DNA from: Microbacterium sp. SORGH_AS_0862
GTDB taxonomy: Bacteria > Actinomycetota > Actinomycetes > Actinomycetales > Microbacteriaceae
Direction: 5' to 3'
DNA length: 64,000 nt
Assembly (NCBI RefSeq): GCF_030818795.1
Contig: NZ_JAUTAY010000001.1
Coordinates: forward strand, 1,674,001-1,738,000
Program-made: the position numbers and the translations under genes
Shown here: positions 3,974 to 57,777 of the stretch, in pieces
Layout: the number at the start of each line of letters is the position of its first letter
How positions within the stretch are numbered: position 1 is the first letter of the stretch
Notes under the pieces: model-generated
The model's input: the letters and a program-made list of their open reading frames with translations, nothing else
The model's database searches: none
What the model was told of the DNA's origin: nothing

Positions 3974-4004
3974 GCGAGCGAAGCGAGCCGAGACGCCGGC
4001 GCTC

Positions 4005-5129: not shown

Positions 5130-5183
5130 GACCACACTCTAGGGCGCGGCCCGCGCGGTAGTGTCGAGCGCGAGGAGGACGCC

Positions 5184-5486: not shown

Positions 5487-5518
5487 TCCTCGTCAGCGCG
5501 GACAGTCGGCCCCGGCCT

Positions 5519-6697: not shown

Positions 6698-6768
6698 GCT
6701 GTTCTCCTCGTCAAGGGCGTGATCCCAACTCCGATCCGGGATCGCGCCCCCTCCATCATCCGCCGTTC

Positions 6769-7464: not shown

Positions 7465-8363
7465 CGCACGACTCCGTTCTCGAGAGCGGGGGACTCGACG
7501 CGCTTGGTGAGGCGCACGACGAGCTGTTGCAGGGACACGGGCGCGAGCTCGAGGCCCGCATCCCGCATGCGTGCGCGTTCATCCGGGGTGACCGCGCCGA
7601 GCACGGTGACGGATGCGACGCGGCCGAGGCTCTCGCGGTGCAGCACCTCCCGGCCGGCGACGAAGGCGTCGACCGCATCGGCGTCGCCGACGACGCTCGT
7701 CGCGCGCTCACGCAGCGCCTCGGTGTCCTCATCCAGCAGAACGCGACCGCCCTCGACGACGATGACCTTCTCGAGGAGGTTCGACACCTCGTCGATGAGG
7801 TGGCTCGAGAGGATGATGGTGCGGGGGTGTTCGGCGTAGTCCTCGAGGAGCCGGTCGTAGAAGATCTGGCGGGCGACCGCATCCAGTCCGAGATACGGCT
7901 CGTCGAAGAATGTGATCTCGGCGCGGGAGGCGATGCCGATGATGACGCCGACCGCGGAGAGCTGTCCGCGCGAGAGCTTCTTGATGCGTGTCTTCATCGG
8001 CAGGCGGAAGTCCGCGACGAGCCGCTCGGCGAGCTCCTGGTCCCAGTTCGGGAAGAAGAGCCTGGCGATGCGGAACGCATGAGCGGGGAGGGCGTCGTCG
8101 GGGTAGCGCTGGCTCTCACGGACGAAGCAGACCCGCGAGAGCACGTGGGCGTTCTCGTAGGGGTCCTCGCCGAACACGCGCACCTGTCCCGAGGTGGCGA
8201 AGTTCTGCGCGGTGAGGATCGACATGATCGTCGTCTTGCCCGCGCCGTTGCGTCCGAGGAGGCCGTAGATGGCGTCCTTCTCGATGCGGAAGCTGACGTC
8301 GTCGATCGCGACGGTGTCGTGGTACCGCTTGGTCAGTGCGCTGACCTCGATCACGGCGGTCAC
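7461..8363 (-). CDS. ABC transporter ATP-binding protein
   Basis: 300 residues with a GTG start inside the stop of the GntR gene (GTGA overlap). Walker A GRNGAGKTTIM is near residues 38-48, the Q-loop region at ITAQNF, a signature LSRGQLSAV, Walker B ITFFDEPYLGLD and the switch His in ILSSHLIDEV. The signature is LSRGQ rather than LSGGQ, common in this exporter type. The C-terminal ~80 residues form a regulatory tail. It pairs with the downstream permease as an exporter controlled by the GntR protein. Confidence 0.92.
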   Translation of the reverse strand: MTAVIEVSALTKRYHDTVAIDDVSFRIEKDAIYGLLGRNGAGKTTIMSILTAQNFATSGQVRVFGEDPYENAHVLSRVCFVRESQRYPDDALPAHAFRIARLFFPNWDQELAERLVADFRLPMKTRIKKLSRGQLSAVGVIIGIASRAEITFFDEPYLGLDAVARQIFYDRLLEDYAEHPRTIILSSHLIDEVSNLLEKVIVVEGGRVLLDEDTEALRERATSVVGDADAVDAFVAGREVLHRESLGRVASVTVLGAVTPDERARMRDAGLELAPVSLQQLVVRLTKRVESPALENGVVR

Positions 8364-8761
8364 TGGTTCGCTCCTTCGTTGGTGTTGGCGTTGGCGTCGG
8401 GGGTGTTGGCGGCGCGGTCCGTGATGAGATGGGTGATGTCCTCCGGGCCGAGTCCGAGCCGGCGGGCCTCGGCCAGCAGCGGCTCGACGAAGCGGTCGGC
8501 GAACGCGGTGCGGCGCTCGTTCAGGAGCACCTCGCGGGCGCCGGGGGCGACGAACATGCCCACCCCCCGGCGCTTGTAGAGCACGCCCTTGTCGACGAGC
8601 ATGTTGACTCCTTTGGCTGCGGTGGCGGGATTGATGCGGTGGAACGCGGCGAGTTCGTTGGTCGACGGCGCCTGGTCCTCCTCGCGGAGGCTGCCGTCGA
8701 CGATCGCGTCCTCGACGCTCTCCGCGATCTGCAGGAAGAGCGGTCTGCCCTCTTCGATCAC
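8360..8761 (-). CDS. GntR-family (YtrA subfamily) transcriptional regulator
   Basis: 133 residues; GTG at 8761. Winged helix: PLFLQIAESVEDAIVDGSL, EEDQAPSTNELAAFHRINP, ATAAKGVNMLVDKGVLYKRRG and the G-MFVAPGAR wing. Only a short helical tail follows, without a large effector domain, which is the YtrA layout. The gene heads an overlapping ABC exporter operon, so it very likely autoregulates that operon. The tail repeats TPDANANTNEGANQ, a small low-complexity stretch. A palindrome lies immediately upstream (see separate entry). Confidence 0.9.
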   Translation of the reverse strand: MIEEGRPLFLQIAESVEDAIVDGSLREEDQAPSTNELAAFHRINPATAAKGVNMLVDKGVLYKRRGVGMFVAPGAREVLLNERRTAFADRFVEPLLAEARRLGLGPEDITHLITDRAANTPDANANTNEGANQ

Positions 8762-8777
8762 TGGGTCCCCGTTCGGT

Positions 8778-8801
8778 GGTTCATTACTTGACTAACTAAC
8801 C
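8778..8801 (-). promoter_or_regulatory. candidate YtrA-type operator
   Basis: A 24-bp AT-rich imperfect palindrome, GGTT at one end and AACC at the other with matching TTA cores, lies 17 bp upstream of the GntR gene start. YtrA-like regulators usually bind such sites over their own promoter. Base composition contrasts sharply with the GC-rich surroundings. Read by eye; no binding evidence. Confidence 0.5.
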
Positions 8802-8911
8802 ATGCAACGACGAGTGTGGCGGCGTCAAGTACGCGGATCGACGTGCGCGTCAGGACTCGGATCGCACCGCATCGCGCGTCCGAGATGGACCGGAGCGCGT
8901 ACGCGTCGCTG

Positions 8912-9268
8912 TCAGACGATGAAGACGCTCTGTCCGTGCCCGATCTGGAAGGACTCGTACTCGTCGGAGCTGTCGATGACGCGAACGCGCAGTCCGCCCT
9001 CGAAGGTCATCGAGAGACTGCGATCGTCGTCGACCACGACGTCCGCGACGAGAGTTCCCAGCGCGGCGACGAGAGTCGCCGCGGCGTCGCGGGTGTCGTC
9101 GACCACGGTCTCCTCAGAATCCGTTTGCTGCACCCCCAACTGGCCCTCCACGGACACGTAGATGCCCTCGTCGAAGCGCATGATCAGTTGATAGCGCCCG
9201 AAGCACAGCTGGTCGAGTGAGCGTCCGCGCAGAAAGTCGAACGTCTCGCCGGCGGGGATTCGGTACAT
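8912..9268 (-). CDS. small conserved protein, DUF6188-like
   Basis: 118 residues, ATG at 9268. Not confidently recognised. The pattern is a small alpha/beta protein: GRSLDQLCFGRYQLIMRFDE, VSVEGQLGVQ, an acidic stretch VADVVVDDDRSLSMTFEGG and IDSSDEYESFQIGHG. This order (GRxLDQLCFGRYQL...LxMxFExGxxLxVxD...YESFQI) resembles the DUF6188 family of unknown function. No signal peptide or membrane segment. It is a single gene between the GntR block and the betaine operon, transcribed away from the latter. Confidence 0.65.
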   Translation of the reverse strand: MYRIPAGETFDFLRGRSLDQLCFGRYQLIMRFDEGIYVSVEGQLGVQQTDSEETVVDDTRDAAATLVAALGTLVADVVVDDDRSLSMTFEGGLRVRVIDSSDEYESFQIGHGQSVFIV

Positions 9269-9638
9269 GGTGTGAACCTACTCCCGCAGAGCACCCGCGC
9301 GGAGCCGGTATTCACGCCGCATGTGCGCACGGGCGCGACGTTTGATATCACGCGGGCGCGGTAGCGCGATCGGTCGGATGCGGCAACCGCGGGGGCCGAC
9401 TTGCGAACCCCGAAAACGCATGACACGTTGGAAAAGGCCCGTCGCCGGGCCCCACGACCAGTCCGCGGTCGCCTGATGCCCCTCCGGGAGCGCGTCGGCG
9501 AGCGTACGGTCGGCGACCGTGCCCGGGCCCTATGCCCGGTGCCCGTGCGTGTTGCGCCTCCCGACGCGACCGCCTGTGGTCGTCCACCCGGGCGTGACCG
9601 ATGCAGTCTGTGCACCGGACTGCCGAGGTGCAATCCAC
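9269..9638 (+). promoter_or_regulatory. 370-bp divergent region / structured leader of the betaine operon
   Basis: No gene is seen. Inverted pairs suggest a folded leader on the + strand: GGCCCG/CGGGCC at 9436-9441 and 9446-9451, and CGGTCGCC/GGCGACCG at 9466-9473 and 9512-9519. The proV ribosome-binding site GAGGTG is at 9625-9630. I could not match it to a known riboswitch class. Confidence 0.35.
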
Positions 9639-10937
9639 GTGAGTGTCGAACATGCCATTGAGGCGCGGAACCTGTTCAAGGTCTTCGGTAAGAATCCCAA
9701 GTCCGTCATCGAGCAGTTGCGCGCGGGCAAGACCCGAGCCGAGGTGTCGGACCGCGGCACGGCCGCGGTGATCGACGCGAGCTTCACCGTCGACCCGGGC
9801 GAGATCTTCGTGATCATGGGCCTCTCCGGCTCCGGCAAGTCCACGATCATCCGGATGCTCAATGGACTGCTGCCCCCGAGCGCCGGCGAGGTACTCGTGC
9901 AGGGCCAGAACGTGACCACGGCGTCGGCCGCGCAGCTGCGCCGCATCCGACGCTCGTCGATCTCGATGGTGTTCCAGCACTTCGCGCTTCTGCCGCACCG
10001 CACGGTGCTCGACAACGCCGCGTACGCGCTGGAGATCCAGGGCGTCGGCACGCAGGAGCGCCGCGAGCGCGCCCGCGAGATCCTCGACAAGGTCGGCCTC
10101 GGCGATCGGGTCGACGCGATGCCCGGTGAGCTCTCCGGCGGAATGCGCCAGCGCGTCGGCCTCGCCCGCGCCCTCACCTCCGGCACCGACATCCTCCTCA
10201 TGGACGAGGCGTTCTCGGCCCTCGACCCCCTCATCCGCCGCGAGATGCAGGAGCAGCTCATCGAGCTGCAGCAGGAGCTCGGGCGCACGATCGTCTTCAT
10301 CACGCACGACCTGAACGAGGCCATGTTCCTCGGCGACCGCATCGCTGTCATGCGCGACGGGCGCATCGTGCAGAACGGCACCCCGGAGGAGATCCTCACC
10401 GACCCGGCGAACGACTACGTCGCCCAGTTCGTGCAGGACGTCGACCGGGCCCGCGTGCTGACCGCATCGTCCGTGATGGCGCCGCCGCAGGCGACGACGC
10501 CCGTGTCGGCCGGGATGCGGGGCGCCCTGCGCGTCATGCGTGACCTCCAGGCCGGAGCGGTGGCCGTCGTCGAGAACCGCCGCTATCTCGGGGCCGTGAC
10601 CGACCGCGCCGTGATCCGCGCGGTCAAGGCGGGCGAGACCGACCTCCGCCGCATCGTGCAGCGCGCGCAGCAGGTGGTCGGACCCGATGACCCGCTGACG
10701 GATGTCGTCGAGCACTCCGTCGAGTCGCCCTACCCCGTCGCCGTGGTCGACGAGCGTCAGCGCCTCATCGGCGTGATCCCCCGCGTCACCCTCCTGGCCG
10801 CCCTCGGCAACGTTCCCACCGTCACGCGCGAGAACCCGATCATCGACGTCCCCGCATCCGTGCCCGCGAGCGTGCTCACCGAGACGCTCGCCGTCGTCGA
10901 CCAACCCGCCGCCACGACCACGGGAGGTGCGCGGTGA
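9639..10937 (+). CDS. proV: glycine betaine/proline ABC transporter ATP-binding protein
   Basis: 432 residues; GTG at 9639 behind GAGGTG. It has the ProV/OpuAA N-terminal extension (NLFKVFGKNP), Walker A GLSGSGKST, Q-loop VFQHFALLPHRTVLDN, signature ELSGGMRQRVGLARAL, Walker B ILLMDEAFSALDPLIR and H-loop ITHDLNEAMFLGDRIAVM. Two C-terminal CBS-like segments follow (~residues 290-400, e.g. RRYLGAVTDRAVIRAV and SPYPVAVVDERQRLIGV), the ionic-strength sensor of the OpuA type. It energises uptake of betaine under osmotic stress. It overlaps proW by four bases. Confidence 0.96.
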   Translation: MSVEHAIEARNLFKVFGKNPKSVIEQLRAGKTRAEVSDRGTAAVIDASFTVDPGEIFVIMGLSGSGKSTIIRMLNGLLPPSAGEVLVQGQNVTTASAAQLRRIRRSSISMVFQHFALLPHRTVLDNAAYALEIQGVGTQERRERAREILDKVGLGDRVDAMPGELSGGMRQRVGLARALTSGTDILLMDEAFSALDPLIRREMQEQLIELQQELGRTIVFITHDLNEAMFLGDRIAVMRDGRIVQNGTPEEILTDPANDYVAQFVQDVDRARVLTASSVMAPPQATTPVSAGMRGALRVMRDLQAGAVAVVENRRYLGAVTDRAVIRAVKAGETDLRRIVQRAQQVVGPDDPLTDVVEHSVESPYPVAVVDERQRLIGVIPRVTLLAALGNVPTVTRENPIIDVPASVPASVLTETLAVVDQPAATTTGGAR

Positions 10938-21880: not shown

Positions 21881-22033
21881 TTACCCCAGCTCCGTCACGG
21901 CTTCCCAGACGCGGCGCTCGGTGTGCTCCACGATGCGGATGTCGGTGCGGTCGTTGATGACGAACGACACCGTGCTGCGGCTCAGACCCACGTGGCGGGC
22001 GACATCGTCCATCGAGACACGGCGCGCGGGCAT
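21881..22033 (-). pseudogene. LacI-family regulator, N-terminal fragment
   Basis: 50 residues from ATG 22033: VSMDDVARHVGLSRSTVSFV, INDRTDIRIVEHTERRVWEA, VTELG then TAA at 21881-21883. The frame continues as RPHAAARALASDA, exactly the segment that follows GY in LacI proteins, so TAC (Tyr) has become TAA. The sequence then runs into the GH32 fragment. It is the dead regulator of the former sugar locus. Confidence 0.8.
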
Positions 22034-22053
22034 CCCTCATTGTTTCACTCGGG

Positions 22054-22084
22054 TGCCGGCGCTGCACGGCTCAGCGGTCGAGGG
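22054..22084 (+). repeat. left direct repeat of the 22-32 kb block
   Basis: 31-bp sequence, identical to 32553-32583 over the first 22 bases and 29 of 31 overall. Weaker similarity extends ~30 bp further. It lies in the lacI promoter region, just outside the nucleoside phosphorylase gene. Confidence 0.75.
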
Positions 22085-22118
22085 CGGGGGCTGGAGGCGC
22101 GGGCTCTGCCCGCGCGGT

Positions 22119-22913
22119 CTACGGTCCGAGCCGGTCGGTGGGGGTCAGATTCACCGATGCGTCGAGAGCGACCTGGAGAAGTCGCAGCTGGACGGGCTCG
22201 TAGTCCTCTAGCCATTCGTCGGTGGCTCTGTTGCCGTGTGCGGCGAGCAGCGCCCCATATCGGGCGTTGAGCGCGCGAGCGATCACGAAGACGGTCTCGC
22301 ACTCCATGTCCATTGCGTCTGCGCCGAGTTCGGTGACATGTCGGAGCCGGTCGCGCGCGAAGTCCTCGAATCCGCTGACCGGGCGCCCTTCACCGAGGTA
22401 GTACGAATCGCACGACAGCGTGGACACCGGAAGCAGCGTCTCATCACGAGTCCGGGCTGCGCGCTCGAGCGCGGCGGCCACGGATGGGTCCGCGCTCACC
22501 GGCTCCGTGCTGGAGTCATAGAAGCGCGCTGCCCCACCCTCTCTGAACGTCCTCTGGACCGAGGTGAGGGATCCGGGCGCGACCGAAGGATTCGAAGCGC
22601 CCATCCCACCCACCCGGATGAACGTGCGTACCCCCAATCGGTGCAACTCGATCAGGGCGATCTCCGTGGACGGTCCGCCGATTCCGGTCGAGCAGATGGC
22701 GATGGACGTACCCCTGTACGAACCGACCGCGAGAGTGAACTCTCGCCGCGAGCCGATGATCTCGAAGCTGTCGAAGAGAGGGGCCGCCAAGCCCACCCGC
22801 GCCGGGTCGCCGGGCAGAAGGCACACTTCGGGCAAGGGTGAGCCGTCGGAGGGGATGTGGGGCGGACGCCCGTCGAGCCACGGATCCGCGGCGGAGCGCA
22901 GTGGAATGTTCAA
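22119..22913 (-). CDS. uridine phosphorylase-like nucleoside phosphorylase
   Basis: 264 residues, TTG start at 22913 with AGGAG just upstream. PNP/UDP family 1 signatures: CLLPGDPARVGLAAPLF (phosphate), ICSTGIGGPSTEIALIEL, FIRVGGMGAS and DAMDMECETVFVIA (ribose/base). It cleaves a nucleoside, probably a pyrimidine one, with phosphate to base and ribose-1-phosphate. It is divergent from the ABC importer operon, sharing a 237-bp AT-richer control region, and would supply base or orotidine-type substrates to that pathway. Substrate is inferred from context. Confidence 0.85.
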   Translation of the reverse strand: MNIPLRSAADPWLDGRPPHIPSDGSPLPEVCLLPGDPARVGLAAPLFDSFEIIGSRREFTLAVGSYRGTSIAICSTGIGGPSTEIALIELHRLGVRTFIRVGGMGASNPSVAPGSLTSVQRTFREGGAARFYDSSTEPVSADPSVAAALERAARTRDETLLPVSTLSCDSYYLGEGRPVSGFEDFARDRLRHVTELGADAMDMECETVFVIARALNARYGALLAAHGNRATDEWLEDYEPVQLRLLQVALDASVNLTPTDRLGP

Positions 22914-23150
22914 TTCTCTCCTAGCGGAAGTTGATTCCGATTTCTCCTGCGGGAAGCCGGTACATCCGGCCTCACTACATTAATGGTTGCACCCGGGCTT
23001 GTGCTTGAAATTGAATGCAAGGCCGTTGTAACGTCGCGGAAACACATCCGGTGGAGACTTGCTTTCTCTCGCTCGCCGGGTCGCCGATGCCCCGAAACTC
23101 TGTGCGCAGTTCATGGAAACATACTTTCGCTCAGTGAAAACAAGGAAGCT
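22914..23150 (+). promoter_or_regulatory. divergent control region of the pyrimidine block
   Basis: 237 bp with much lower GC than the flanks. On the + strand TTGAAA (23005-23010) and TGTAAC (23027-23032), 16 bp apart, form a good promoter for the importer operon with a leader of ~110 nt; AAGGA precedes the start at 23151. TTGAAATTGAATGCAA (23005-23020) is a partial palindrome over the -35 and a possible site for the IclR protein encoded in the operon. Confidence 0.5.
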
Positions 23151-23900
23151 ATGACAACTCTGCTCGACATCGACCACGTCACCAAGACCTACCGCCGACG
23201 CGGCAATCCTGATGTGATGGCGCTCAGCGACGTCAGCTTGTCGATCGGAGATCAAGAGATCGTCGCGTTGATCGGACCAAGCGGATGCGGCAAGTCCACG
23301 CTGCTCCGCATGATTGCGGGCCTCGACGACGACTACGTCGGTTCTCTCAAGTGGTCCGTGCCCCCGCGGCCCGGCAAGGACATTGGCTTCGTCTTCCAGG
23401 AGGCCACCCTTCTTCCATGGCGATCCGTGAGCCGCAACGTGGCGCTGGGCCTGGAAAGTCAGCGGATGGACAAGGCTGCCCGCTCGGCGCGAGTGGAAGA
23501 ACTGCTCGAGATGGTCGGACTGCGCGATTTCGCGCAGTCGTATCCCTCACAGCTCTCCGGGGGAATGAAGCAGCGCGTCGGAATCCTGCGAGCGTTGGCG
23601 TACGACCCGCGCGTCCTGCTCATGGACGAGCCCTTCGGTGCGCTCGACGCGATCACCCGCGACAAGCTGCAGGACGACCTTCTCGCCATCTGGGAGCGCA
23701 CGCACAAGACGATCGTGCTCGTCACCCACAGCGTCGAGGAGGCCGCCTACCTCGCCGACCGGGTCGTGGTGATGAGCCCGCGGCCCGGTCGAATCAAGTC
23801 GATCCATGACGTGCCGTTCTCTCGTGAGCGGTCATCCGAAACGCGACAACTCCCGGAGTTCGCGCACTTCACCGGCATGCTCCGCGAGGAACTCGGATGA
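23151..23900 (+). CDS. ABC importer ATP-binding protein, SsuB/TauB type
   Basis: 249 residues, ATG behind AAGGA. Walker A IGPSGCGKSTLLRM, Q-loop FVFQEATLLPWRSV, signature LSGGMKQRVGILRAL, Walker B VLLMDEPFGALDAITR, H-loop LVTHSVEEAAYLADRVVVM and a SPRPGRI tail typical of nitrate/sulfonate/pyrimidine importers. First gene of the orotate-type operon; it overlaps the permease by four bases and must energise both permeases of the system. Confidence 0.93.
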   Translation: MTTLLDIDHVTKTYRRRGNPDVMALSDVSLSIGDQEIVALIGPSGCGKSTLLRMIAGLDDDYVGSLKWSVPPRPGKDIGFVFQEATLLPWRSVSRNVALGLESQRMDKAARSARVEELLEMVGLRDFAQSYPSQLSGGMKQRVGILRALAYDPRVLLMDEPFGALDAITRDKLQDDLLAIWERTHKTIVLVTHSVEEAAYLADRVVVMSPRPGRIKSIHDVPFSRERSSETRQLPEFAHFTGMLREELG

Positions 23901-24697
23901 CGACGACCGAGCTGGCCGAAGTGTCGCGGCCGCGCATCACCTCGCGGCCGCTCATGCTTGTCGGGCGGGCGCTCGCATATGTCGTCGTCATCATCGCGCT
24001 GTGGTGGGCGTACGTCACGATCGCGAATGTCCCGCAGTACTTGCTTCCCAGCCCGGGCGCTGTCGGAGAGGCGCTCGTCGGCTTGACGGTCAGCGGTGAG
24101 CTCTGGGTGCACCTCGGATACACCCTGCGCAACATCGCACTGGGCTTCATCGGCGGAGTCGTGATCGGATGCGGCCTCGGATACGTGCTGTGGCGTTCTC
24201 GGTGGGCGCGAGACATCGCAAATCCGTACATCCTCGTGCTCCAGGCAGCCCCCAAGATCGCGATCGCCCCACTGCTCGTGCTGTGGTTCGGGCTCGGCCT
24301 CGAGTCGCAGCTCGTGCTCATCCTCACGCTGACGTTCTTCCCGATGATGATCGCGATGCAGCTCGGACTGTCGTCCACACCACCCGCCTTCGGCGACCTC
24401 GGCCGCATCCTCGGCGTCGGCCGCGGTCGCTACTTCTTCCAGTTTCAGCTGCCGCACGCCATGCCGGAGCTGTTCGCGGGGGCAAAGATCGCGATCGTCG
24501 ACGCGATGACCGGCGCGTTCCTGGCGGAGTTCATCTCCGCCCAAGAGGGGCTCGGCTATCTCATGGTCCTCGGCAATACCTCGTACAACAGCTCGCTGCT
24601 CATCGCAGCCGTCATCGTCACGATCGTCACCGGTTTGGCCGGCTTCGGCGTGATCTCGTTCGCCGAACGCCGCATCCTGCGGTGGCGAGCGATCTGA
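23897..24697 (+). CDS. ABC importer permease 1
   Basis: 266 residues, ATGA overlap with the ATPase gene. Six membrane helices; LLPSPGAVGEALVGL near the N-terminus and the EAA loop LGRILGVGRGRYFFQFQLPHAMPELFAGAKI are standard for the BPD_transp_1 NitT/TauT family. Its substrate should be the small heterocycle degraded by the operon. Similar in sequence to the second permease at 25758 (LPSPGEV..., QVTPKISIAPLLILWIGLG versus QAAPKIAIAPLLVLWFGLG), so the pair is a heterodimer. Confidence 0.93.
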   Translation: MTTTELAEVSRPRITSRPLMLVGRALAYVVVIIALWWAYVTIANVPQYLLPSPGAVGEALVGLTVSGELWVHLGYTLRNIALGFIGGVVIGCGLGYVLWRSRWARDIANPYILVLQAAPKIAIAPLLVLWFGLGLESQLVLILTLTFFPMMIAMQLGLSSTPPAFGDLGRILGVGRGRYFFQFQLPHAMPELFAGAKIAIVDAMTGAFLAEFISAQEGLGYLMVLGNTSYNSSLLIAAVIVTIVTGLAGFGVISFAERRILRWRAI

Positions 24698-24733
24698 CCT
24701 GCACCACCCGACACACACCCGCAAAGGAAAAGC

Positions 24734-25768
24734 ATGTCACGCAAGAACATCGCCGCGCTCGTCGCGGCAACCGCTGCGGCGGCTCTCTTGATCACCGGCT
24801 GTAGCCCCGCCGACGTCGCGAACAACAGCGGCGGATCCGCCGCTGGCGGCGAGACGACGAAGGTCACCCTTCAGATCGACGGCGCCGCAGTGCCCTACTA
24901 CGCGCCGCTCTATGAAGCCGTCGAGCAGGGCTACTTCGCGGACGAGGGAATCGATGTCGAGTTCACCTATGCCGAAGGCTCCGCGATCCTACAGAACGTT
25001 GCGGCCGGCAACGTGCAGTTCGGATTCCCCAACGGTGACTCCGTCATCACGGCGAAGGCCAAGGGTGTGGATGTCGACATCGTCCACACGACGTATCAGC
25101 AGGGGATCGGCGCCATCCTGTTCAACAAGGACACTGCAGGCATCACCTCACCGGCGGACCTGGCAGGCAAGCGCATCGCGGTCACCGACCTCGGCAGCCC
25201 GAACTACATCCAGCTGCAGGCCATCCTCCAGTCGGCAGGGCTGACGGTCAACGACGTGCAGGTGTCGACAGTAGGGTCCGGGGCCATCGTCCAGGCTCTC
25301 CAGAACGGCGAGGTGGACGCGATCGCCTTCTCGCGCATTCGCTACTATGCTCTCCAGGCCGCAGGCTTCCCCGTCGGCCAGATCCTCAGCGACGAGTACC
25401 TTCCCTCGTTCGGTAACGTCCTGGTGACGAGCCCGTCCTTCCGCGAGTCGAAGCCGGAGGTCGTTCGCGGATTCGTCTCGGCGTTGGATAAGGGCATCGA
25501 GTACGTGATCGCTCATCCCGCCGACTCCGTCGCGCAGGTCATCCCCGCTTACGCCGATACCTTCGCGGGCCAGGAGAAGACAGTGACCGATGTGATCCAG
25601 AACGTCTTCATCCCGGACCTGTGGACGTCGGACGCGACGAAGGCGAACGGTCTCGGTTACGGTGATCTCGATCGCTGGCAGGCCTCCATCGACAATCAGG
25701 CGGAGTACGGCATCATCCCGAAGGCCTTCGACGCCTCCGATCTGGTGGTGGAGCCCGGTGACCTCTGA
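24734..25768 (+). CDS. ABC importer substrate-binding lipoprotein, NMT1/THI5-like
   Basis: 344 residues, ATG 24734 behind AAAGGA. Lipobox LLITGC (Cys near residue 23). NMT1/SsuA-type fold: KVTLQIDGAAVPYYAPLYEA, VEQGYFADEGIDVEFTYAEG, NVQFGFPNGDSVITAKAKG, DLAGKRIAVTDLGSPNYIQL, GEVDAIAFSRIRYYALQAAG. The family binds thiamine pyrimidine precursors, riboflavin, sulfonates and similar. In this operon a pyrimidine such as orotate is the best guess. It lies between the two permease genes and overlaps the second by 11 bases. Confidence 0.9.
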   Translation: MSRKNIAALVAATAAAALLITGCSPADVANNSGGSAAGGETTKVTLQIDGAAVPYYAPLYEAVEQGYFADEGIDVEFTYAEGSAILQNVAAGNVQFGFPNGDSVITAKAKGVDVDIVHTTYQQGIGAILFNKDTAGITSPADLAGKRIAVTDLGSPNYIQLQAILQSAGLTVNDVQVSTVGSGAIVQALQNGEVDAIAFSRIRYYALQAAGFPVGQILSDEYLPSFGNVLVTSPSFRESKPEVVRGFVSALDKGIEYVIAHPADSVAQVIPAYADTFAGQEKTVTDVIQNVFIPDLWTSDATKANGLGYGDLDRWQASIDNQAEYGIIPKAFDASDLVVEPGDL

Positions 25769-26531
25769 CGCCTCTACCGCGTCGCGAGTGAGGTCGCTCC
25801 TTGTCGGAGCGGCCTCACTCGCCACCGGCCTCTTCGCGTGGTGGGCGCTCGCCGAGTACGGCGGTCTGCCTACTTATGTCCTCCCGTCGCCCGGCGAGGT
25901 GCTGGCGCGCGCGCAGTCGCTCCTCGGGAGCGGGTCTTTGCAGCTGAACACGGCGCAGACTCTGGCCGAGGTTCTGCAGGGCGCTGTCATCGGTGCTCTG
26001 GCGGGCGTCGTGCTCGCGATGCTCTTCTATCGTGTCCCCGTCATCCGCCGTCTGCTCTTGCCGGTGGTCGTCGTGATGCAGGTGACTCCCAAGATCTCGA
26101 TCGCGCCGTTGCTCATTCTGTGGATCGGTCTCGGTATCGGCTCCAAGATCACTCTCGTGGCTCTCGTTGTCTTCTACCCGGTGCTCATCACGATGCTCGC
26201 CCGTCTCGACGCACTGCCCTCTGCGATGTTGGACCTCGCGAAGATCCTGAACATGGGAGCGATGCGCCGCGCCGTGCGCATGGAACTGCCCTTCACGCTC
26301 CCCGCACTCGCGTCCGGTCTCGGAATCGGCATGCTGGCGGGCGTGACGGCTGCGGTGATCGGTGAGTTCATCGGTGCGACGGCCGGCTTGGGCTTCCTCG
26401 AGAAGCAGGGGCAGGACAATGACGACGTGGCACTGGTGATCGTCGCCTTGCTCATACTGTCCTTCATCGGTTGGGCCCTGTTCCAGTCCGTCAGGGTGGC
26501 CGAACGGCTTCTCACACGGAGGTATGCGTGA
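25758..26531 (+). CDS. ABC importer permease 2
   Basis: 257 residues; GTG at 25758 chosen because it overlaps the lipoprotein stop and gives a short N-terminus (VTSDASTASRVRSLL) before helix 1. Six helices, YVLPSPGEVLARAQSLLG, PKISIAPLLILWIGLGIGSK and the coupling loop LAKILNMGAMRRAVRMELPF. The open frame extends upstream into the lipoprotein gene but that part is not real. It overlaps the dehydrogenase gene by four bases, tying import to the enzymes. Confidence 0.92.
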   Translation: MTSDASTASRVRSLLVGAASLATGLFAWWALAEYGGLPTYVLPSPGEVLARAQSLLGSGSLQLNTAQTLAEVLQGAVIGALAGVVLAMLFYRVPVIRRLLLPVVVVMQVTPKISIAPLLILWIGLGIGSKITLVALVVFYPVLITMLARLDALPSAMLDLAKILNMGAMRRAVRMELPFTLPALASGLGIGMLAGVTAAVIGEFIGATAGLGFLEKQGQDNDDVALVIVALLILSFIGWALFQSVRVAERLLTRRYA

Positions 26532-27460
26532 TCTCTCCTGTTCTGACCGACCCTCCGGCGGTCGGTGTCGATCTGAGCGTACGCATCGGTTCGCTCGTGC
26601 TGAACAATCCCGTGATGCCGGCGTCTGGATGCTTCGGGCCGGAGCTCGCGCCCTTGTTGGCGTGCCAGCGGTTGGGTGCCGTGGTCACCAAGACGGTGTT
26701 CGCCGAAGCGCGGGGCGGGAACGCACCGCACCGCCTGAGCGAGATACCGGCGGGAATGATCAACAGCGTCGGGATCCCCAGCCTGGGTCCGACCGGATAC
26801 CTGAAGAGTCTGCATCCCGCCTACCGTGCGTTGGGCACGTCGGTGATCGTCAGTGTCGGAGGGCACCGCGAAGGGGATTATGCTCCCGTCGTCGCGGAAC
26901 TGGGCAACGCGGCCGACGCGTACGAACTGAATGTCTCCTGCCCGAATCTGGACGCCGACGGCAGAGACATCGGCTCGGATCCGTCGGCGATCATGACCGT
27001 CGTCGCGCAGACTCGGCGAGAGACCGATCGGCCGCTCATCGTCAAACTCCCGCCCATGGTCGCCTCGATCGCCGAGTGCGCGGGGGCCGCCGAAGCGGCG
27101 GGAGCGGACGCGGTCTGTGTGTCCAACTCCCTGCCCGTGCTGGCCCTGGACGAGCGCACGCGTCGTCCCATCCTCGGCAACGTCGTGGGTGGGCTCACGG
27201 GTCCGTCGATCAAACCCATCGTCCAGCGGCTCGTGTGGCAGAGCGCGCGAGCCGTGCGGATTCCTGTGGTCGCGTGCGGGGGGATCATGACGGCCGATGA
27301 CGCCCTCGACTACATGAGTCTCGGCGCGTCGGCCGTGCAAGTGGGAACTGCCACCTTCTCCCGGCCCTCATCGATGGTAGACATCGTGGACGAGCTACGG
27401 TCTCGTGTCATCGCGAACGGTGCGCGCGGGCTCGACGAACTAGTGGGGGCTGTTGCATGA
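26528..27460 (+). CDS. pyrD: dihydroorotate dehydrogenase, class 1B PyrD-like
   Basis: 310 residues, GTG at 26528 inside the permease stop. FMN TIM-barrel: LNNPVMPASGCFG, AVVTKTVFAEARGGN, MINSVGIPSLGPTGYL, the orotate-binding and catalytic ELNVSCPNLDADGRD (Cys base, Asn), VKLPPMVASIAECA, CVSNSLPVLALD and VACGGIMTADDALDYMSLGA. SCPN, not the SCPHG of dihydropyrimidine dehydrogenases, argues for orotate rather than uracil. With the PyrK-like subunit at 30442 it should run NAD(P)H-linked, here probably toward dihydroorotate. A PyrD outside the usual pyr operon. Confidence 0.9.
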   Translation: MISPVLTDPPAVGVDLSVRIGSLVLNNPVMPASGCFGPELAPLLACQRLGAVVTKTVFAEARGGNAPHRLSEIPAGMINSVGIPSLGPTGYLKSLHPAYRALGTSVIVSVGGHREGDYAPVVAELGNAADAYELNVSCPNLDADGRDIGSDPSAIMTVVAQTRRETDRPLIVKLPPMVASIAECAGAAEAAGADAVCVSNSLPVLALDERTRRPILGNVVGGLTGPSIKPIVQRLVWQSARAVRIPVVACGGIMTADDALDYMSLGASAVQVGTATFSRPSSMVDIVDELRSRVIANGARGLDELVGAVA

Positions 27461-28299
27461 CCGAAGAAACACGGGCGGGCGGCACTGCGGGTCTCACGGG
27501 CATCACCCGGGCCCTCAGGGTGCTGAGCCACCTGGCAGATGCTCCCGCGGGGCTGCCGATGAAAGCCATCCATTCTGAGCTCGGGATCCCCTTCGCCACC
27601 GTTCACCGGCTTCTCGCGGCGCTCGAATCAGAGGGGTGGGTCGTTCGCTCGCCCACGACGAAGCGATACCGGTTGGGTCCGGAGGCCGTCCGGCTCGGGC
27701 GGAGCCACGGCCGCACCGAAACGATCGTCGCACCCCCTGATGCGCTGCGGGTGGCCTCGGTTGCGACGGGGGAGACGGTGTTTCTCACCCGAATGTACGA
27801 CACCCGCGTCATCTGCATCTCGCTGGTCGAAGGCCGCCATCCGCTGCGTCTGTTCGTCCGTGCAGGTCAGGAGATGCCGCTTCATGCCGCCGCTTCGGCG
27901 CGGACGATCTTGGCCTATCAGGACCCGATGTTCGTCGAGCACCTCCTCACTGCGGCGCCACGCGACGCTTTCACCCCCGGCACGATCCGGGAGGTGAACC
28001 GCGTCATCGATCATCTCGCCAAGGTTCGCGGCTTCGGCTTCGACGTGTGCGACAACGAACTAGACGACGATGTCTGGGCTGTCGCCGCGCCCGTCTACGA
28101 GGCCGATGGCCGCGTGGACGTCGCCGTCACGATCGCCGCCGCTGCGGCGCGCATGGATTCAGCGGAGTCGAGAGTGAAGGCTGCGCAGAGCGTCATCGCC
28201 GCTGGACGTGCTCTCTCCCTCGCCAACGGATACATCGCCGCAGACGACCAAGACCTCACAGCCGAGCGGCTGATGACGCAGATGGGAGAGCTGCGATGA
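27457..28299 (+). CDS. IclR-family transcriptional regulator
   Basis: 280 residues, ATGA overlap with pyrD. Winged HTH: GITRALRVLSHLADAPAGLP, MKAIHSELGIPFATVHRLLA, ALESEGWVVRSPTTKRYRLG. Effector domain: PLRLFVRAGQEMPLHAAASA, RTILAYQD, FGFDVCDNELDDDVWAVAAP, VDVAVTIAAA. It sits inside the catabolic operon, as IclR proteins often do, and probably senses a pathway compound to control the divergent promoters at 22914-23150. Confidence 0.93.
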   Translation: MTEETRAGGTAGLTGITRALRVLSHLADAPAGLPMKAIHSELGIPFATVHRLLAALESEGWVVRSPTTKRYRLGPEAVRLGRSHGRTETIVAPPDALRVASVATGETVFLTRMYDTRVICISLVEGRHPLRLFVRAGQEMPLHAAASARTILAYQDPMFVEHLLTAAPRDAFTPGTIREVNRVIDHLAKVRGFGFDVCDNELDDDVWAVAAPVYEADGRVDVAVTIAAAAARMDSAESRVKAAQSVIAAGRALSLANGYIAADDQDLTAERLMTQMGELR

Positions 28300-28736
28300 G
28301 CGGCGACTGGATCGACGACCCCCTCCGACTCCAGGAACTACGAGCAGATCTCCTGGCCGACGGTGCAGCGCTCGCGGGGGTCGGCACGCCGGCGTGGATC
28401 CACCGACCTTCGACGCTGCGTCGTGTGGCCAGCGAACTCGCCCGCGCCCTGCCGCCTCACTTCGACAGGATCGTCGCGACCGGCGACGGCGCCGAGGCTC
28501 TGGGAGCCGCCGTCTCGCTGGCGACCGGTGTCGCCTTCGGTAAGGAGGGCGACATGGTCGTTCCGGGCGAGCAGATCGTCGTCGTTGCTGCACGCGCAGC
28601 CGATGCGCACGCGTATCAGAACGATGCGGTGACAGTGGTCGCCCGGCGCGCCGTGTGGGCGATGCCTCCTGGCGCGGATGCGTTGTTCACGTTGCCGTCG
28701 AGCCCGATCATCAGCCCACGAGAGGATCTGTCATGA
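28296..28736 (+). CDS. degenerate phosphoribosyltransferase-like protein 1
   Basis: 146 residues, ATGA overlap on both sides. Layout resembles a short orotate phosphoribosyltransferase: LQELRADLLADGAALAGVG, WIHRPSTLRRVASELARALP, DRIVATGDGAEALGAAVSLA then TGVAFGKEGD. The expected PRPP loop (DDVxTxG after a hydrophobic strand) is absent; that place reads QIVVVAARAADAHAYQND. It therefore probably binds a ligand without transferase activity, but this is an inference from eye alignment. Neighbouring gene encodes a second such protein. Confidence 0.65.
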   Translation: MSGDWIDDPLRLQELRADLLADGAALAGVGTPAWIHRPSTLRRVASELARALPPHFDRIVATGDGAEALGAAVSLATGVAFGKEGDMVVPGEQIVVVAARAADAHAYQNDAVTVVARRAVWAMPPGADALFTLPSSPIISPREDLS

Positions 28737-29179
28737 CTCCCATTGCACACAACATCCGCAAGATCACGTCCGGACACGAGCGGGCTCGTCTTCACCCCGA
28801 GAAGGACCCGCGAGCTGCTCGTGAGGTCGCTGCGGAGGTGGCGCGCGCTTTGAGCGGGCTCGACGCTGACATCACAGCCATCGCCTGCTGGACCAGTCCG
28901 GAGAACCTGATACTCGCTTTCGCGGTCGCCGACGCTTCGGGGGTGCCGGCCGTGCAGCTGTCCGAGGACGAGGGCCTGCTGTACCTGAGCTGGGAGATAC
29001 CGCCCGCTCGCGTGGGCTTGGTGTCGGCATCGGCCGAGTCGGCACGACAGATCGACGTCGCCGCGGAAGCGCTGGCCGGAGCCGGTCACACGTGCGTCGC
29101 GGTGGCGCAGCTCACCCCGGCAGAGGGCGACCGGGACGGTCTGCTGACTGCGCGTACGCTCGGGGACTCCGAGCGATGA
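28733..29179 (+). CDS. degenerate phosphoribosyltransferase-like protein 2
   Basis: 148 residues, ATGA overlaps on both sides. PRTase-type order: REVAAEVARALSGLDADITA, AIACWTSPENLILAFAVADA, SGVPAVQLSEDEGLLYLSWE, ARVGLVSASAESARQIDVAA then EALAGAGHTCVAVAQL. The last segment occupies the place of the PRPP loop, but the acidic pair and TxG are replaced by SASAESARQ. With protein 1 it may form a non-catalytic pair. Function is unknown; it could help bind orotate or a nucleotide. Confidence 0.65.
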   Translation: MTPIAHNIRKITSGHERARLHPEKDPRAAREVAAEVARALSGLDADITAIACWTSPENLILAFAVADASGVPAVQLSEDEGLLYLSWEIPPARVGLVSASAESARQIDVAAEALAGAGHTCVAVAQLTPAEGDRDGLLTARTLGDSER

Positions 29180-30445
29180 GAACGGCTGTGCTGCCGGTTC
29201 ATCCCGCCGAGGCCTCGAGGCTCACCGCTGATCTGAGCGCATTCGCGGCCTTCACGGAGGCAGGTGACGGGGTGACGCGGCTGGCGTATTCCGCTCTCGA
29301 ACGCCGTGCTCATGCCTTCTTCGAGGAACGGATGCGGGAGTTGGGCTGCGCCGTGCACACGGATGCAGCCGGCAACACCGTTGCAGAACTCGCTCCGACG
29401 GCAGACACCGACGTCGCAGGTGCGATCGGTACCGGGTCGCATCTGGACAGCGTCGTTCACGGCGGTCGATTCGACGGTATCGCAGGTGTGGTCGCAGCGA
29501 TGGAGGTCGCCCGTCTCGCGGTGGGGAGCTCGATCGCGCGGCGGCGACCGTGGCGTTTCGTCGCCTTCGCCGCGGAGGAGGGCGCCAGGTTCGGCCAGGC
29601 CTGCAACGGATCACGGATGATCGCCGGCCTGACCTCCGTGGAGGACACTCGGCATCTGCGAGACGTAGACGGCGTTTCCATGTATCAGGCCATGTGTGAT
29701 GTCGGGCTCGCGCCTGACGAGCTCCTCTCGCACGTGTGGGATCCCGCTCAGTGGCACGCCTTCGTGGAGCTTCATGTGGAGCAGGGGGCGGTGCTTCAGG
29801 ATGCGGGCGTCGCCATCGGAGTGGTGGACTCCATCTCGGGGAGCACCCGCCTGCATGTCGTGGTCGATGGGACGGCATCGCACACGGGTGCCACTCCCAT
29901 GCACCGGCGGCGTGATGCGCTCGTCGCCGCCGCATCGTGCGTCATCGCAGGCAACAGCATCGCGAACGATTCCGCTCACCACGGCACCAGGGTCACCGTC
30001 GGCCGTCTCGATGTGTCGCCGGGGGCCATCACGACGATCCCCCGGACGCGTCGATTTCGTTGTGGATGTGCGAGACGTCGACAGTGATCGACAGAGGGCC
30101 ACTGTCGACCAGCTCGTCTCCGCGTACCGGGCTGCCGCGGAGGCGGAAGGCACAGACGTCTCGGTGAAGGTGATCGCCGACACATCGCCGGTCGTGCTGC
30201 CCGCGATCGTCAAGGATCATCTCGTCGCTGCGGCGGCTGAGCATGGGCTGGCGTACCGACTGCTCTCCAGCGGCGCCAGCCATGATGCCCAACAGGTGAA
30301 CAGGGTCACCCCGACGGGCATGATCTTCGTTCCGAGCGTCGACGGACTCAGCCATGTCCCCGAAGAGCACACCGAGGCGAGCGACCTCGCCAGCGGTGTG
30401 GATGTGCTCCTCGCCGCGCTCTATCGGCTGGACGTCGACGCGTGA
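29176..30445 (+). CDS. M20 N-carbamoyl amidohydrolase (ureidosuccinase-type), frameshifted
   Basis: Starts at ATG 29176 overlapping the previous stop. Zinc hydrolase of the AllC/HyuC/beta-ureidopropionase group: GTGSHLDSVVHGGRFDGIAG (zinc His/Asp), FVAFAAEEGARFGQACNGSR (catalytic Glu), FVELHVEQGAVLQDAGV, GTASHTGATPMHRRRDALVA. At the C5 run 30039-30043 the frame breaks; dropping one C gives ITTIPGRVDFVVDVRDVDS and a 422-residue protein ending EEHTEASDLASGVDVL... at 30445. Expected role: hydrolyse N-carbamoyl-aspartate to aspartate, CO2 and NH3. Either a recent lesion or a base-call error. Confidence 0.85.
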
Positions 30446-31287
30446 TCCCCGACGCCCTCGCGGATCAGCTTCGTGCGCAGGCCGTCCCGTTCTCGCTCCC
30501 GGAACCGGTGTCGGTGTCGGCACGGGTCCTCCGTCACGAAACGGTCAGTCAGACCTACCGACGCCTCGTCCTGGAGGCGCCGGCGATCGCGGAACGCGCC
30601 CAATCAGGTCAATTCGTCATGGTCACTGTCCCCGGTGCTGAACGCGTTCTCCTTCCGCGACCGATGGCGATCCACCGGCGACGCGTCGACGACGGCACGA
30701 TCGAGCTCATCTACGGGCAGGTAGGCAGGGGTACCCGCATCCTCTCGCAGGCCGAGGCGGGTTCCTCGCTTCTAGCTACCGGTCCCCTGGGGCGCGGCTA
30801 CAGCATTCCCGACGGGCCCGGACCGATTCTGCTCATGGGGAGAGGGATCGGCATCTGCGCGTTCATGACTGTGGCCGAGGACGCGAGGACGCGCGCGATC
30901 CCGGCCGTCGCGGTGTTGAGTGCGCGCACGGCTCAGCGCGTCATCGGCGAGTCGGATGCCGCGGAGTTGGGCGTTCAGGCCATTGCCGTGCACGATGCGA
31001 ACGGTTCGAGTGAGATCGCAGCGGTCGAGCAGCTGCTCGAGGGGCGCTTCGACACTCTTCCTCCGCGCGCCATTTTCGTCTGCGGGTCATCGCGGCTGGC
31101 GCTGTTGGCGAGGCGCCTCGGGGATCGCTGGGGGAGCATGGTCCAGGTGTCCCTCGAGGCTCACATGGCATGCGGCCTCGGTTATTGTCATGGCTGCGCG
31201 GCTCCGATGCGCTCCGACCCCGCCTCAGAGGGCCCCCTCGTCTGCGTCGACGGCCCCGTCTTCGATCTGCGTGGAGCGCTCAAATGA
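30442..31287 (+). CDS. pyrK: dihydroorotate dehydrogenase electron-transfer subunit, PyrK-like
   Basis: 281 residues, GTG overlapping the amidohydrolase stop. FAD domain with LLPRPMAIHRRRVDDGTIEL (RPxxI motif), LIYGQVGRGTRILSQ, NAD(P) site LLMGRGIGICAFMTVAED, and C-terminal 2Fe-2S cysteines in HMACGLGYCHGCAAPM and GPLVCVDGPVFD (four Cys). It links NAD(P)H to the FMN of PyrD. In the pathway proposed here electrons flow from NADH to orotate. GRGIG replaces the more common GGGIG. Confidence 0.92.
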   Translation: MIPDALADQLRAQAVPFSLPEPVSVSARVLRHETVSQTYRRLVLEAPAIAERAQSGQFVMVTVPGAERVLLPRPMAIHRRRVDDGTIELIYGQVGRGTRILSQAEAGSSLLATGPLGRGYSIPDGPGPILLMGRGIGICAFMTVAEDARTRAIPAVAVLSARTAQRVIGESDAAELGVQAIAVHDANGSSEIAAVEQLLEGRFDTLPPRAIFVCGSSRLALLARRLGDRWGSMVQVSLEAHMACGLGYCHGCAAPMRSDPASEGPLVCVDGPVFDLRGALK

Positions 31288-32522
31288 TCCTGGAGGCCGT
31301 CCGTCTGTCGCACGCGCCGCAGCGTGTCGTCGACGTTCGCGTGGAGAGGGGGCGCATAGCGTCCATATGCGACTCCGTTTCGCGGCGGAGCGACCTCGTT
31401 CTCCTTCCGGGGCTGGTCGATCTGCACACACATCTTCGTGAGCCTGGCGGGGAGGGAGCGGAGGACATCGCTTCGGGCACGCGTGCGGCCGTCGCCGGCG
31501 GGTACACCGACGTGTTCGCGATGCCGAACACCGAGCCCGCGGTAGACAGCGTCCAGCATGTGCTTCTCCAGCGCGAGCTCGCCCGCGGCGCGAGCTCGCG
31601 CGTGCACACGATCGCTGCGGCGACGATGGGACGCCGGGGGCGGGAGCTCGTCGACGTGGCGGCGCTGCGGGCGCAGGGGGTGCATGTCTTCTCCGATGAC
31701 GGGGCGTGTGTCGACGACCCCGCTGTCGTCGAGGCGCTTCTTCGATCGCTCGCCGTGCTGGGCGGTGTCTTCGCTCAGCACGCGCAGAGCGCGTCTCTTG
31801 CAGAGCGGGGTGTCGCGAACGCGCGGGTCGCTTCCAGCCTCGGAGTGGAGCCGTGGCCGGTCGAGGCGGAAGAAGCGGTCGTCGCGCGTGATATCGACCT
31901 CGCAGCGGCCACGGGTGGACGCTTGCACATCTGCCACGTGTCGACGGCGGGGACGGTTGCGCTCGTGCGCGCCGCCAAGGCACGCGGGGTCCCCGTGACG
32001 GCGGAGGTCGCACCGCACCACCTGCTCCTCACCGACTCCCTGCTTCAGGCGGAGAACGGTGTCTTCAAGGTGAACCCCCCGTTGAGGGCCGAGGCTGACG
32101 TCGAGGCGCTGCGGCTCGGGCTACGCGATGGAACGATCGACATCGTCGCGACCGATCACGCCCCTCATTCGAAGGCGAAGAAGCTCGCTCCGCTCGCGGA
32201 CGCCGCTTTCGGCTTCACCGGACTGGAGACGGCGCTCTCGATCGTGGCAGATGTGTTCGAGGATGCGGACGGCAGGGTCGATTGGTCCCGCGTTGCGGAC
32301 GTTCTCGCCCACCGCCCGGCTGCCATCGGCGGAGTGGCGTCTGTGGCGGGGCGTCCGCTCATTGTGGGAGAGCCCGCCACCTTCGCGCTCGTCCGTGCGG
32401 GGGCGACGTACGCCGTCGACGGAGCCGATCACATGAGCGCATCCGCGAACACGCCCTTCCAAGGGCGGACATTGCGACACCGGGTCGAGTCGGTGTGGAT
32501 CGAGGGAGTCCCGGCTCGTTGA
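31284..32522 (+). CDS. pyrC: dihydroorotase, class I PyrC-like
   Basis: 412 residues, ATGA overlap with pyrK. Amidohydrolase barrel: LLPGLVDLHTHLREPGGEGA (zinc His pair; Arg for the substrate carboxylate), GGYTDVFAMPNTEPAVD (Asn for the carboxylate), FSDDGACVDDP, FAQHAQSASL, HICHVSTAGTVALV and IVATDHAPHSKAKK (catalytic Asp). Presence of both carboxylate-binding residues supports dihydroorotate as substrate rather than hydantoin or dihydrouracil. It would open dihydroorotate to N-carbamoyl-aspartate for the M20 enzyme. Last gene of the operon; the right direct repeat begins 31 bp after its stop. Confidence 0.92.
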   Translation: MILEAVRLSHAPQRVVDVRVERGRIASICDSVSRRSDLVLLPGLVDLHTHLREPGGEGAEDIASGTRAAVAGGYTDVFAMPNTEPAVDSVQHVLLQRELARGASSRVHTIAAATMGRRGRELVDVAALRAQGVHVFSDDGACVDDPAVVEALLRSLAVLGGVFAQHAQSASLAERGVANARVASSLGVEPWPVEAEEAVVARDIDLAAATGGRLHICHVSTAGTVALVRAAKARGVPVTAEVAPHHLLLTDSLLQAENGVFKVNPPLRAEADVEALRLGLRDGTIDIVATDHAPHSKAKKLAPLADAAFGFTGLETALSIVADVFEDADGRVDWSRVADVLAHRPAAIGGVASVAGRPLIVGEPATFALVRAGATYAVDGADHMSASANTPFQGRTLRHRVESVWIEGVPAR

Positions 32523-57665: not shown

Positions 57666-57732
57666 GCGCGTCACCCTACCCAGCCCGCATTGCCGTCGGG
57701 TGACCCGCCGGGGATGTGAGTCCGGAATGTTG

Positions 57733-57755
57733 GTAACAGTTACATTTGCGAAATG
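57733..57755 (+). promoter_or_regulatory. paired palindromes in the uraD-allB intergenic region
   Basis: GTAACAGTTAC (57733-57743) and CATTTGCGAAATG (57743-57755) are perfect palindromes that touch at one base. They lie between the divergent uraHD and allB genes, in an AT-rich stretch, and are likely sites for the ureide-pathway regulator (gene not in the window). Confidence 0.6.
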
Positions 57756-57764
57756 TGGAGCACT

Positions 57765-57770: not shown

Positions 57771-57777
57771 TGTCGGC

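What the first reader, a model, noticed from the sequence alone, without database searches (positions are those of the whole stretch)
22119..32522. Self-contained operon for orotate uptake and degradation
The tightly overlapping genes encode an NMT1-type importer, PyrD, PyrK, PyrC and an M20 carbamoyl hydrolase, plus an IclR regulator and a divergent nucleoside phosphorylase. Biosynthetic pyr genes (pyrB, carAB, pyrE) are absent, and biosynthesis needs neither a carbamoyl-aspartate hydrolase nor an importer. PyrD has SCPN and PyrC keeps the Arg and Asn that hold the orotate carboxylate. Together they fit orotate to dihydroorotate to N-carbamoyl-aspartate to aspartate, the route described in anaerobes such as Clostridium oroticum, here in an actinobacterial importer operon.
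Basis: partly seen in the sequence, partly recalled or inferred. Interest (0 to 1): 0.9.

Follow-up and report, generated by a model that had tools for sequence, protein, structure and literature searches.

The report
Orotate breakdown operon in Microbacteriaceae
Beside its normal pyrimidine-making genes this bacterium carries a second, separate gene set that most likely imports orotate and breaks it down to aspartate and ammonia, together with two unstudied small proteins that look like inactive cousins of the enzyme that normally consumes orotate.

Summary
Class 1B PyrD, PyrK, a dihydroorotase and an M20 carbamoylase sit with an NMT1-type ABC importer and IclR; a separate biosynthetic set lies elsewhere in the genome. 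The order recurs in M. gubbeenense and four other Microbacteriaceae loci, in part in a fifth. Two things were missed. (1) The M20 frame is broken in this assembly; 11 of 11 relatives compared are whole, both halves are under purifying selection, and the genome's own carA and carB are frame-broken too, so assembly error is likeliest. (2) Two small genes fit no known family; their models have the type I phosphoribosyltransferase fold without the PRPP motif. Gene B is in 10 of 10 Microbacteriaceae M20-bearing operon loci, gene A in 8 of 10. PyrK-PyrD-M20-cyclic amidohydrolase recurs in Bacillaceae (with aspartate ammonia-lyase in 5 of 11 clusters) and in an Azospirillaceae MAG with an E. coli-type dihydroorotase. 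These swaps favour orotate, dihydroorotate, carbamoyl-aspartate, aspartate. A TTCCGN5CGGAA operator pair marks the divergent promoter in relatives. No activity or growth was tested.

The parts
22119..22913 (-). divergent nucleoside phosphorylase (PNP_UDP_1), specificity unknown; the GQER stretch of uridine phosphorylases reads GEGR in 6 of 6 operon copies
22914..23150 (.). divergent promoter region; weak (3-mismatch, read by eye) copies of the relatives' operator TTCCGN5CGGAA at 22915-22929 and 23125-23139
23151..23900 (+). ABC transporter ATPase (start chosen by reading)
23897..24697 (+). ABC permease 1
24734..25768 (+). NMT1-type substrate-binding lipoprotein
25758..26531 (+). ABC permease 2 (start chosen by reading)
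26528..27460 (+). PyrD, class 1B dihydroorotate dehydrogenase catalytic subunit (searches used 26534-27460)
27457..28299 (+). IclR-family regulator
28296..28736 (+). gene A: 146 aa, type I phosphoribosyltransferase fold by model, no PRPP motif
28733..29179 (+). gene B: 148 aa, type I phosphoribosyltransferase fold by model, no PRPP motif
29176..30445 (+). M20 hydantoinase/carbamoylase-family amidohydrolase, frame broken near 30040 in this assembly; candidate N-carbamoyl-L-aspartate hydrolase
30442..31287 (+). PyrK, FAD/2Fe-2S electron transfer subunit
31284..32522 (+). PyrC, dihydroorotase (pyrC_multi type)

Best explanation
A regulated catabolic operon for orotate (perhaps also dihydroorotate). 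The ABC importer brings the compound in; PyrD-PyrK reduces orotate to dihydroorotate with NADH; PyrC opens the ring to N-carbamoyl-L-aspartate; the M20 enzyme releases L-aspartate, CO2 and ammonia. IclR controls a divergent promoter, probably through TTCCGN5CGGAA operators. Shown: gene families, a separate biosynthetic set, conserved order, co-occurrence in three phyla, operator motif in relatives. Inferred: direction of flux, ligands of importer and IclR, every enzyme activity. In this assembly the M20 frame is broken, most likely by an assembly error. Genes A and B are phosphoribosyltransferase-fold proteins without the PRPP motif, so accessory (sensing, holding or gating orotate) rather than transferases; that role is inference.
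For: PyrD passes a curated dihydroorotate dehydrogenase cut-off (NF005574, 294 against 269 bits) and is far under PreA's (110.7 against 335); best solved match is a dihydroorotate dehydrogenase B PyrD subunit. PyrC passes TIGR00857 (332 against 279); 33 of the 60 solved rows listed, the best ones, are dihydroorotases or CAD. Biosynthetic set elsewhere: quinone-type PyrD 492 against 433, PyrC 703 against 538, PyrB, CarA/CarB, PyrE. A second strong DHODH in 15 of 16 genomes with operon-type PyrD that were asked (typed as quinone class only in the window's genome; the exception is 81% complete; G956 not asked) and in both distant genomes. Operon-type PyrD and PyrC separate from biosynthetic ones with 100/99 and 100/100 support. 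carA and carB lie with PyrKD in 6 of 6 class-level controls, in 0 of 12 operon-type loci. Dihydroorotase replaced by pyrC_dimer (440.9 against 292.95 bits) with PyrE and TRAP beside it in L016. Full aspartate ammonia-lyase in 5 of 11 clusters of Oceanobacillus and kin. Three importer types: ABC, MFS, TRAP. All genes under purifying selection against M. gubbeenense, dN/dS 0.06-0.36.
Against: No activity or growth data. M20 is a broad family: the best profile is named allantoate amidohydrolase, and ErtE (carbamoyl-glutamate) is close. PyrC misses the actinobacterial dihydroorotase equivalog cut-off (430 against 538), PyrD narrowly misses TIGR01037 (268.5 against 270), PyrK misses every PyrK cut-off listed (86-109 against 219-314). 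The cyclic amidohydrolase of Oceanobacillus passes the allantoinase cut-off (372.1 against 357.85) as well as TIGR00857. L060 has no PyrC match in its 13.4 kb. Five loci keep PyrD-PyrK without M20 or PyrC, which the pathway does not explain. M20 relatives without PyrDK are common (8 of 19 loci of that family). The window's own operator copies are poor (3 mismatches each).
Confidence: 0.8

Rival explanations
1. Reductive uracil/thymine catabolism: PyrD-PyrK act as a dihydropyrimidine dehydrogenase, PyrC as dihydropyrimidinase, M20 as beta-ureidopropionase, and the phosphorylase supplies uracil from uridine.
For: M20 relatives in the PDB include beta-alanine synthases; the phosphorylase is nearest to uridine phosphorylases; the two pathways share their chemistry (PMC4016543, passages).
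Against: PreA 110.7 against 335 and dihydropyrimidinase 125 against 393 bits, while dihydroorotate families are met; an E. coli-type dihydroorotase replaces PyrC in L016; aspartate ammonia-lyase points to aspartate, not beta-alanine.
Confidence: 0.08
2. A salvage operon running forwards: imported carbamoyl-aspartate or dihydroorotate is turned into orotate for nucleotide synthesis.
For: Dihydroorotase and class 1B DHODH are reversible (general knowledge); L016 has PyrE beside its cluster.
Against: The M20 enzyme would destroy the substrate; a separate biosynthetic set exists; aspartate ammonia-lyase beside 5 of 11 clusters; no PyrE or PyrF family match in the operon itself (for pyrE).
Confidence: 0.06
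3. The operon is decaying in this strain: M20 is truly broken and the pathway stops at carbamoyl-aspartate.
For: Frameshift near 30040; weak operator copies; M20 whole in 11 of 11 relatives compared.
Against: dN/dS of the part behind the break is 0.075, like the other genes; carA and carB, needed for biosynthesis, are frame-broken in the same assembly, so the assembly has frame errors.
Confidence: 0.12

Closest known systems
Orotate fermentation route of Clostridium (Zymobacterium) oroticum
   Same: class 1B dihydroorotate dehydrogenase (titles in reference lists, one table row), dihydroorotase; carbamoyl-aspartate and aspartate as products (recalled)
   Different: here an actinobacterial operon with importer, IclR, operators and two phosphoribosyltransferase-like proteins; the C. 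oroticum genome was not examined
Reductive pyrimidine (uracil) catabolism: dihydropyrimidine dehydrogenase, dihydropyrimidinase, beta-ureidopropionase
   Same: same three reactions in the same order: reduce, open ring, remove carbamoyl
   Different: enzyme families are those of orotate metabolism
ErtD/ErtE branch of ergothioneine use (hydantoin-5-propionate, N-carbamoyl-glutamate)
   Same: cyclic amidohydrolase plus M20 carbamoylase; ErtE is among the best M20 profiles
   Different: below the ErtE and ErtD cut-offs (368 against 520 for the M. gubbeenense M20, 126.5 against 650 for PyrC); no PyrDK step named there
Orotate phosphoribosyltransferase (PyrE) and PurR-type phosphoribosyltransferase-fold regulators
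   Same: predicted fold of genes A and B
   Different: no PRPP motif; about 146-148 aa; no DNA-binding domain seen

Membership tests
Class 1B dihydroorotate dehydrogenase | PyrD over a curated cut-off, with the SCPN cysteine | tested here: met
   NF005574 294 against 269; TIGR01037 268.5 against 270, just under; SCPN aligned with 1ep1
Class 1B dihydroorotate dehydrogenase | PyrK partner with 2Fe-2S domain | tested here: met
   PF10418 41.8 against 23.9; NCBIfam PyrK cut-offs not reached
Class 1B dihydroorotate dehydrogenase | NAD-linked activity on orotate/dihydroorotate | not testable with these tools
   needs enzyme assay
Dihydroorotase (pyrC_multi) | TIGR00857 cut-off and HxHLREP...MPNT residues | tested here: met
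   332 against 279; alignment to 3gri; stricter NF006836 not reached (430 against 538)
M20 hydantoinase/carbamoylase family | TIGR01879 cut-off | tested here: met
   5' part alone 240 against 204; intact M. gubbeenense gene 373
M20 hydantoinase/carbamoylase family | intact reading frame in the window | tested here: not met
   broken near 30040; 11 of 11 relatives compared are whole
N-carbamoyl-L-aspartate hydrolase | activity on carbamoyl-aspartate | not testable with these tools
   no named profile for it was matched; inferred from context
Type I phosphoribosyltransferase (genes A, B) | fold | tested here: met
Type I phosphoribosyltransferase (genes A, B) | PRPP-binding motif (acidic pair, TTG; recalled) | tested here: not met
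   absent by eye in 7 of 7 rows of A1 and 12 of 12 rows of A2; present in the genome's PyrE
Uridine phosphorylase (22119-22913) | TIGR01718 cut-off | tested here: not met
   134.7 against 280.3
Reductive uracil pathway | PreA and dihydropyrimidinase cut-offs | tested here: not met
   110.7 against 335; 125 against 393
Orotate catabolic pathway | PyrD/PyrC additional to the biosynthetic ones | tested here: met
Orotate catabolic pathway | growth on, or induction by, orotate | not testable with these tools
   needs culture

The most novel reading that the evidence does not exclude
Genes A and B form a heteromeric, catalytically dead descendant of orotate phosphoribosyltransferase that binds orotate and decides its fate, either by signalling orotate to the IclR-controlled operon or by holding it for PyrDK so that PyrE does not draw it into nucleotide synthesis: a pseudoenzyme gate between the anabolic and catabolic use of one compound.
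Probability: 0.25. Interest if true: 0.78.

Novelty: new variant of a known kind. Interest (0 to 1): 0.62.

Why it matters
Orotate degradation is known biochemically from anaerobes (recalled), but in the listings of my searches of the open-licence library (lists capped in 13, 28 and 58) I saw no paper that names an operon for it. This gives a regulated gene set with a candidate carbamoyl-aspartate hydrolase, recurring in three phyla with different dihydroorotases and importers, so the pathway can be tested directly in a strain held in a collection such as M. gubbeenense DSM 15944. It warns that PyrD, PyrK or PyrC annotations need not mean biosynthesis, and it uncovers two conserved, uncharacterised phosphoribosyltransferase-like protein families tied to this operon.

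Tried and rejected
Sequence-profile link of A and B to PyrE was too weak to use (hhalign probability 7.3 and 1.0, against only two PyrE rows); A against B gave E 2.5e-4, probability 43; the fold comparison carried the point. A TTIP stretch in M20 where solved relatives have N-x-IP holds in 9 of 9 Microbacteriaceae rows but reads SRIP in L016 and NVVP in Oceanobacillus, so I dropped it as a substrate marker. The pyrB query was translated one base out of frame (4 stops) and is ignored. No 10-mer is shared by three or more of the six divergent regions; only the palindrome search showed the operator, whose pattern was read off these same regions. L014 and L015 (Bacteroidota) have PyrK-PyrD without a match to M20; M20 relatives L104, L105 and 8 of the 18 Bacillaceae loci have no PyrDK beside them: M20 homology alone does not mark the pathway. 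M20 against plasmids: three distant matches. First carB/carA query from L074 was in a wrong frame; repeated in the right frame with three controls. Papers: PMC9326563, PMC10395836, PMC4016543 passages only; all others from search listings.
Full report
WHAT IS THERE. The window is bases 1674001-1738000 of a single 3.50 Mb contig. The nearest named relative of the operon is Microbacterium gubbeenense. Between 22119 and 32522 lie a nucleoside phosphorylase on the minus strand and, on the plus strand, ATPase, permease, NMT1-type binding protein, permease, PyrD, IclR, two small genes A and B, M20, PyrK and PyrC. From PyrD to PyrC every junction is a 4-base overlap. G+C is 0.645-0.676 over 22001-30000 against about 0.70 for most of the window, though 4001-10000 is near 0.67 too. 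PyrD of this kind is in 3 of 295 genomes of the genus (E 1e-50) and 15 of 398 of the family sample (E 1e-40): a patchy trait, possibly moved by horizontal transfer (inference).

CORRECTIONS TO THE FINDING. The M20 frame breaks near 30040; 29176-30087 and 29996-30445 match successive parts of the same profiles. The 11 full-length relatives compared (9 Microbacteriaceae, L016, L013) are whole; L066's copy runs off its locus and was not compared. Against M. gubbeenense the parts before and behind the break have dN/dS 0.135 and 0.075, in the range of the other genes (0.06-0.36). In the same assembly the biosynthetic carB is split between two frames at the point that corresponds to residue 334-338 of three control proteins, and carA is split likewise near its start. 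Genes needed for biosynthesis broken in the same way make an assembly error the likeliest reason for the M20 break.

NOT THE BIOSYNTHETIC SET. The same genome has a quinone-type PyrD at 134769-135635 (492 bits, cut-off 433), a dihydroorotase at 3392243-3393466 (703 bits, cut-off 538), PyrB next to it, CarA and CarB nearby, and PyrE at 1394324-1394827. Of 16 genomes with the operon-type PyrD that I asked (G956 was not), 15 hold a second strong DHODH and the sixteenth is 81% complete. Trees place operon-type PyrD (16 rows) apart from six biosynthetic actinobacterial rows and five others (100/99), and operon-type PyrC (9 rows) apart from seven biosynthetic rows, the genome's own among them (100/100); the PyrD tree warns of long branches meeting. 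The six controls have carA and carB beside PyrK-PyrD; 0 of 12 operon-type loci and 0 of 5 PyrD-PyrK-only loci do.

CONSERVATION IN THE FAMILY. The order phosphorylase / ATPase-permease-binding protein-permease-PyrD-IclR-A-B-M20-PyrK-PyrC recurs in M. gubbeenense (L012) and in L057, L063, L064 and (without A) L065; L060 has ATPase to PyrK, is cut by its contig end upstream and has no PyrC match. L017, L067 and L068 have IclR, PyrD, M20, PyrK and PyrC; in L017 and L067 an MFS transporter, nearest to the aromatic acid/H+ symport family but under its cut-off, stands where the ABC importer is missing. L068's transporter was not identified. Of the 14 other family genomes fetched by place, 5 are of the ABC type (L057, L060, L063, L064, L065), 2 as just said (L067, L068), 5 have PyrD-PyrK alone, one (L066) has M20 about 9 kb away, one (L069) has a distant PyrD and PyrK.

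OUTSIDE THE FAMILY. In an Azospirillaceae MAG (L016) PyrK-PyrD-M20 is followed by an E. coli-type dihydroorotase (TIGR00856, 440.9 against 292.95 bits), with a TRAP transporter and an orotate phosphoribosyltransferase (NF001729, 380 against 245) nearby. In Oceanobacillus neutriphilus (L013; Bacillaceae) M20-PyrK-PyrD-cyclic amidohydrolase is followed, one gene on, by aspartate ammonia-lyase. M20 matches at E 1e-90 are in 35 of 159 genomes of that family. I fetched 18 of the 34 besides L013's: 10 of 18 have the four genes together; with L013 that is 11 of 19, with a full aspartate ammonia-lyase in 5 (L013, L088, L089, L098, L101), fragments in one (L087), and a TRAP binding protein in 5 (L089, L097, L101, L102, L103). 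The match in L089's genome contains one stop codon, not looked at further. Of 82 genomes of the Azospirillaceae's order 3 match its M20; the two others show no cluster. L016's and L013's genomes each hold another DHODH. Replacing the dihydroorotase by another subtype and adding aspartate ammonia-lyase is what one expects if the intermediates are dihydroorotate and carbamoyl-aspartate and the product aspartate. Against this, the Oceanobacillus cyclic amidohydrolase also passes the allantoinase cut-off narrowly (372.1 against 357.85).

REGULATION. The divergent regions carry a palindrome TTCCGN5CGGAA: 9 sites with at most 1 mismatch in 5 of 6 regions against 0.087 expected from shuffles; with up to 2 mismatches still 9, against 1.1. 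In four regions two copies lie 190-199 bases apart. The motif was read off these regions, so the excess is descriptive. The window has only 3-mismatch versions. That IclR binds it is inferred.

PHOSPHORYLASE AND IMPORTER. GQER of uridine phosphorylases reads GEGR in 6 of 6 operon copies (residue roles recalled). Orotidine is a natural guess, untested. The binding protein's nearest solved relatives include thiamine-pyrimidine binders, which fits a pyrimidine but proves nothing.

VERDICT. The chemistry is a known kind; the operon form, its regulation and the two phosphoribosyltransferase-like proteins are the new parts.

Noticed in passing
L056, L058, L059, L061, L062 (five genomes of one genus of the family): PyrD-PyrK of the catabolic clade stands alone, without M20 or PyrC, upstream of polynucleotide phosphorylase (typed by profile in L061 only), although each genome has a second strong DHODH; in L058, L059, L061 and L062 a TTCCGN5CGGAA-like palindrome lies about 100-125 bases upstream of the PyrD match.
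   Followed up: partly
G000:C1 about 3387250-3391700 (L019 1258-5700): The genome's own carB and carA each appear split between frames against three control proteins, which suggests frame errors in this assembly.
   Followed up: partly
window 57547-59124 (+): Allantoinase (TIGR03178, 530 against 358 bits), so purine ureide use is encoded in the same window.
   Followed up: no
L065 and L017: Gene A is missing while gene B remains, so B may act without A.
   Followed up: partly
L087: Fragments of aspartate ammonia-lyase and of the neighbouring gene remain beside an intact cluster, suggesting local gene loss.
   Followed up: no
L012 (10,720-base contig): The M. gubbeenense contig begins and ends close to the operon's borders, which may mean repeats or mobile DNA around it.
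   Followed up: no
L066 (G999): PyrD-PyrK and an M20 relative lie about 9 kb apart with transporter genes between; their relation was not worked out.
   Followed up: no
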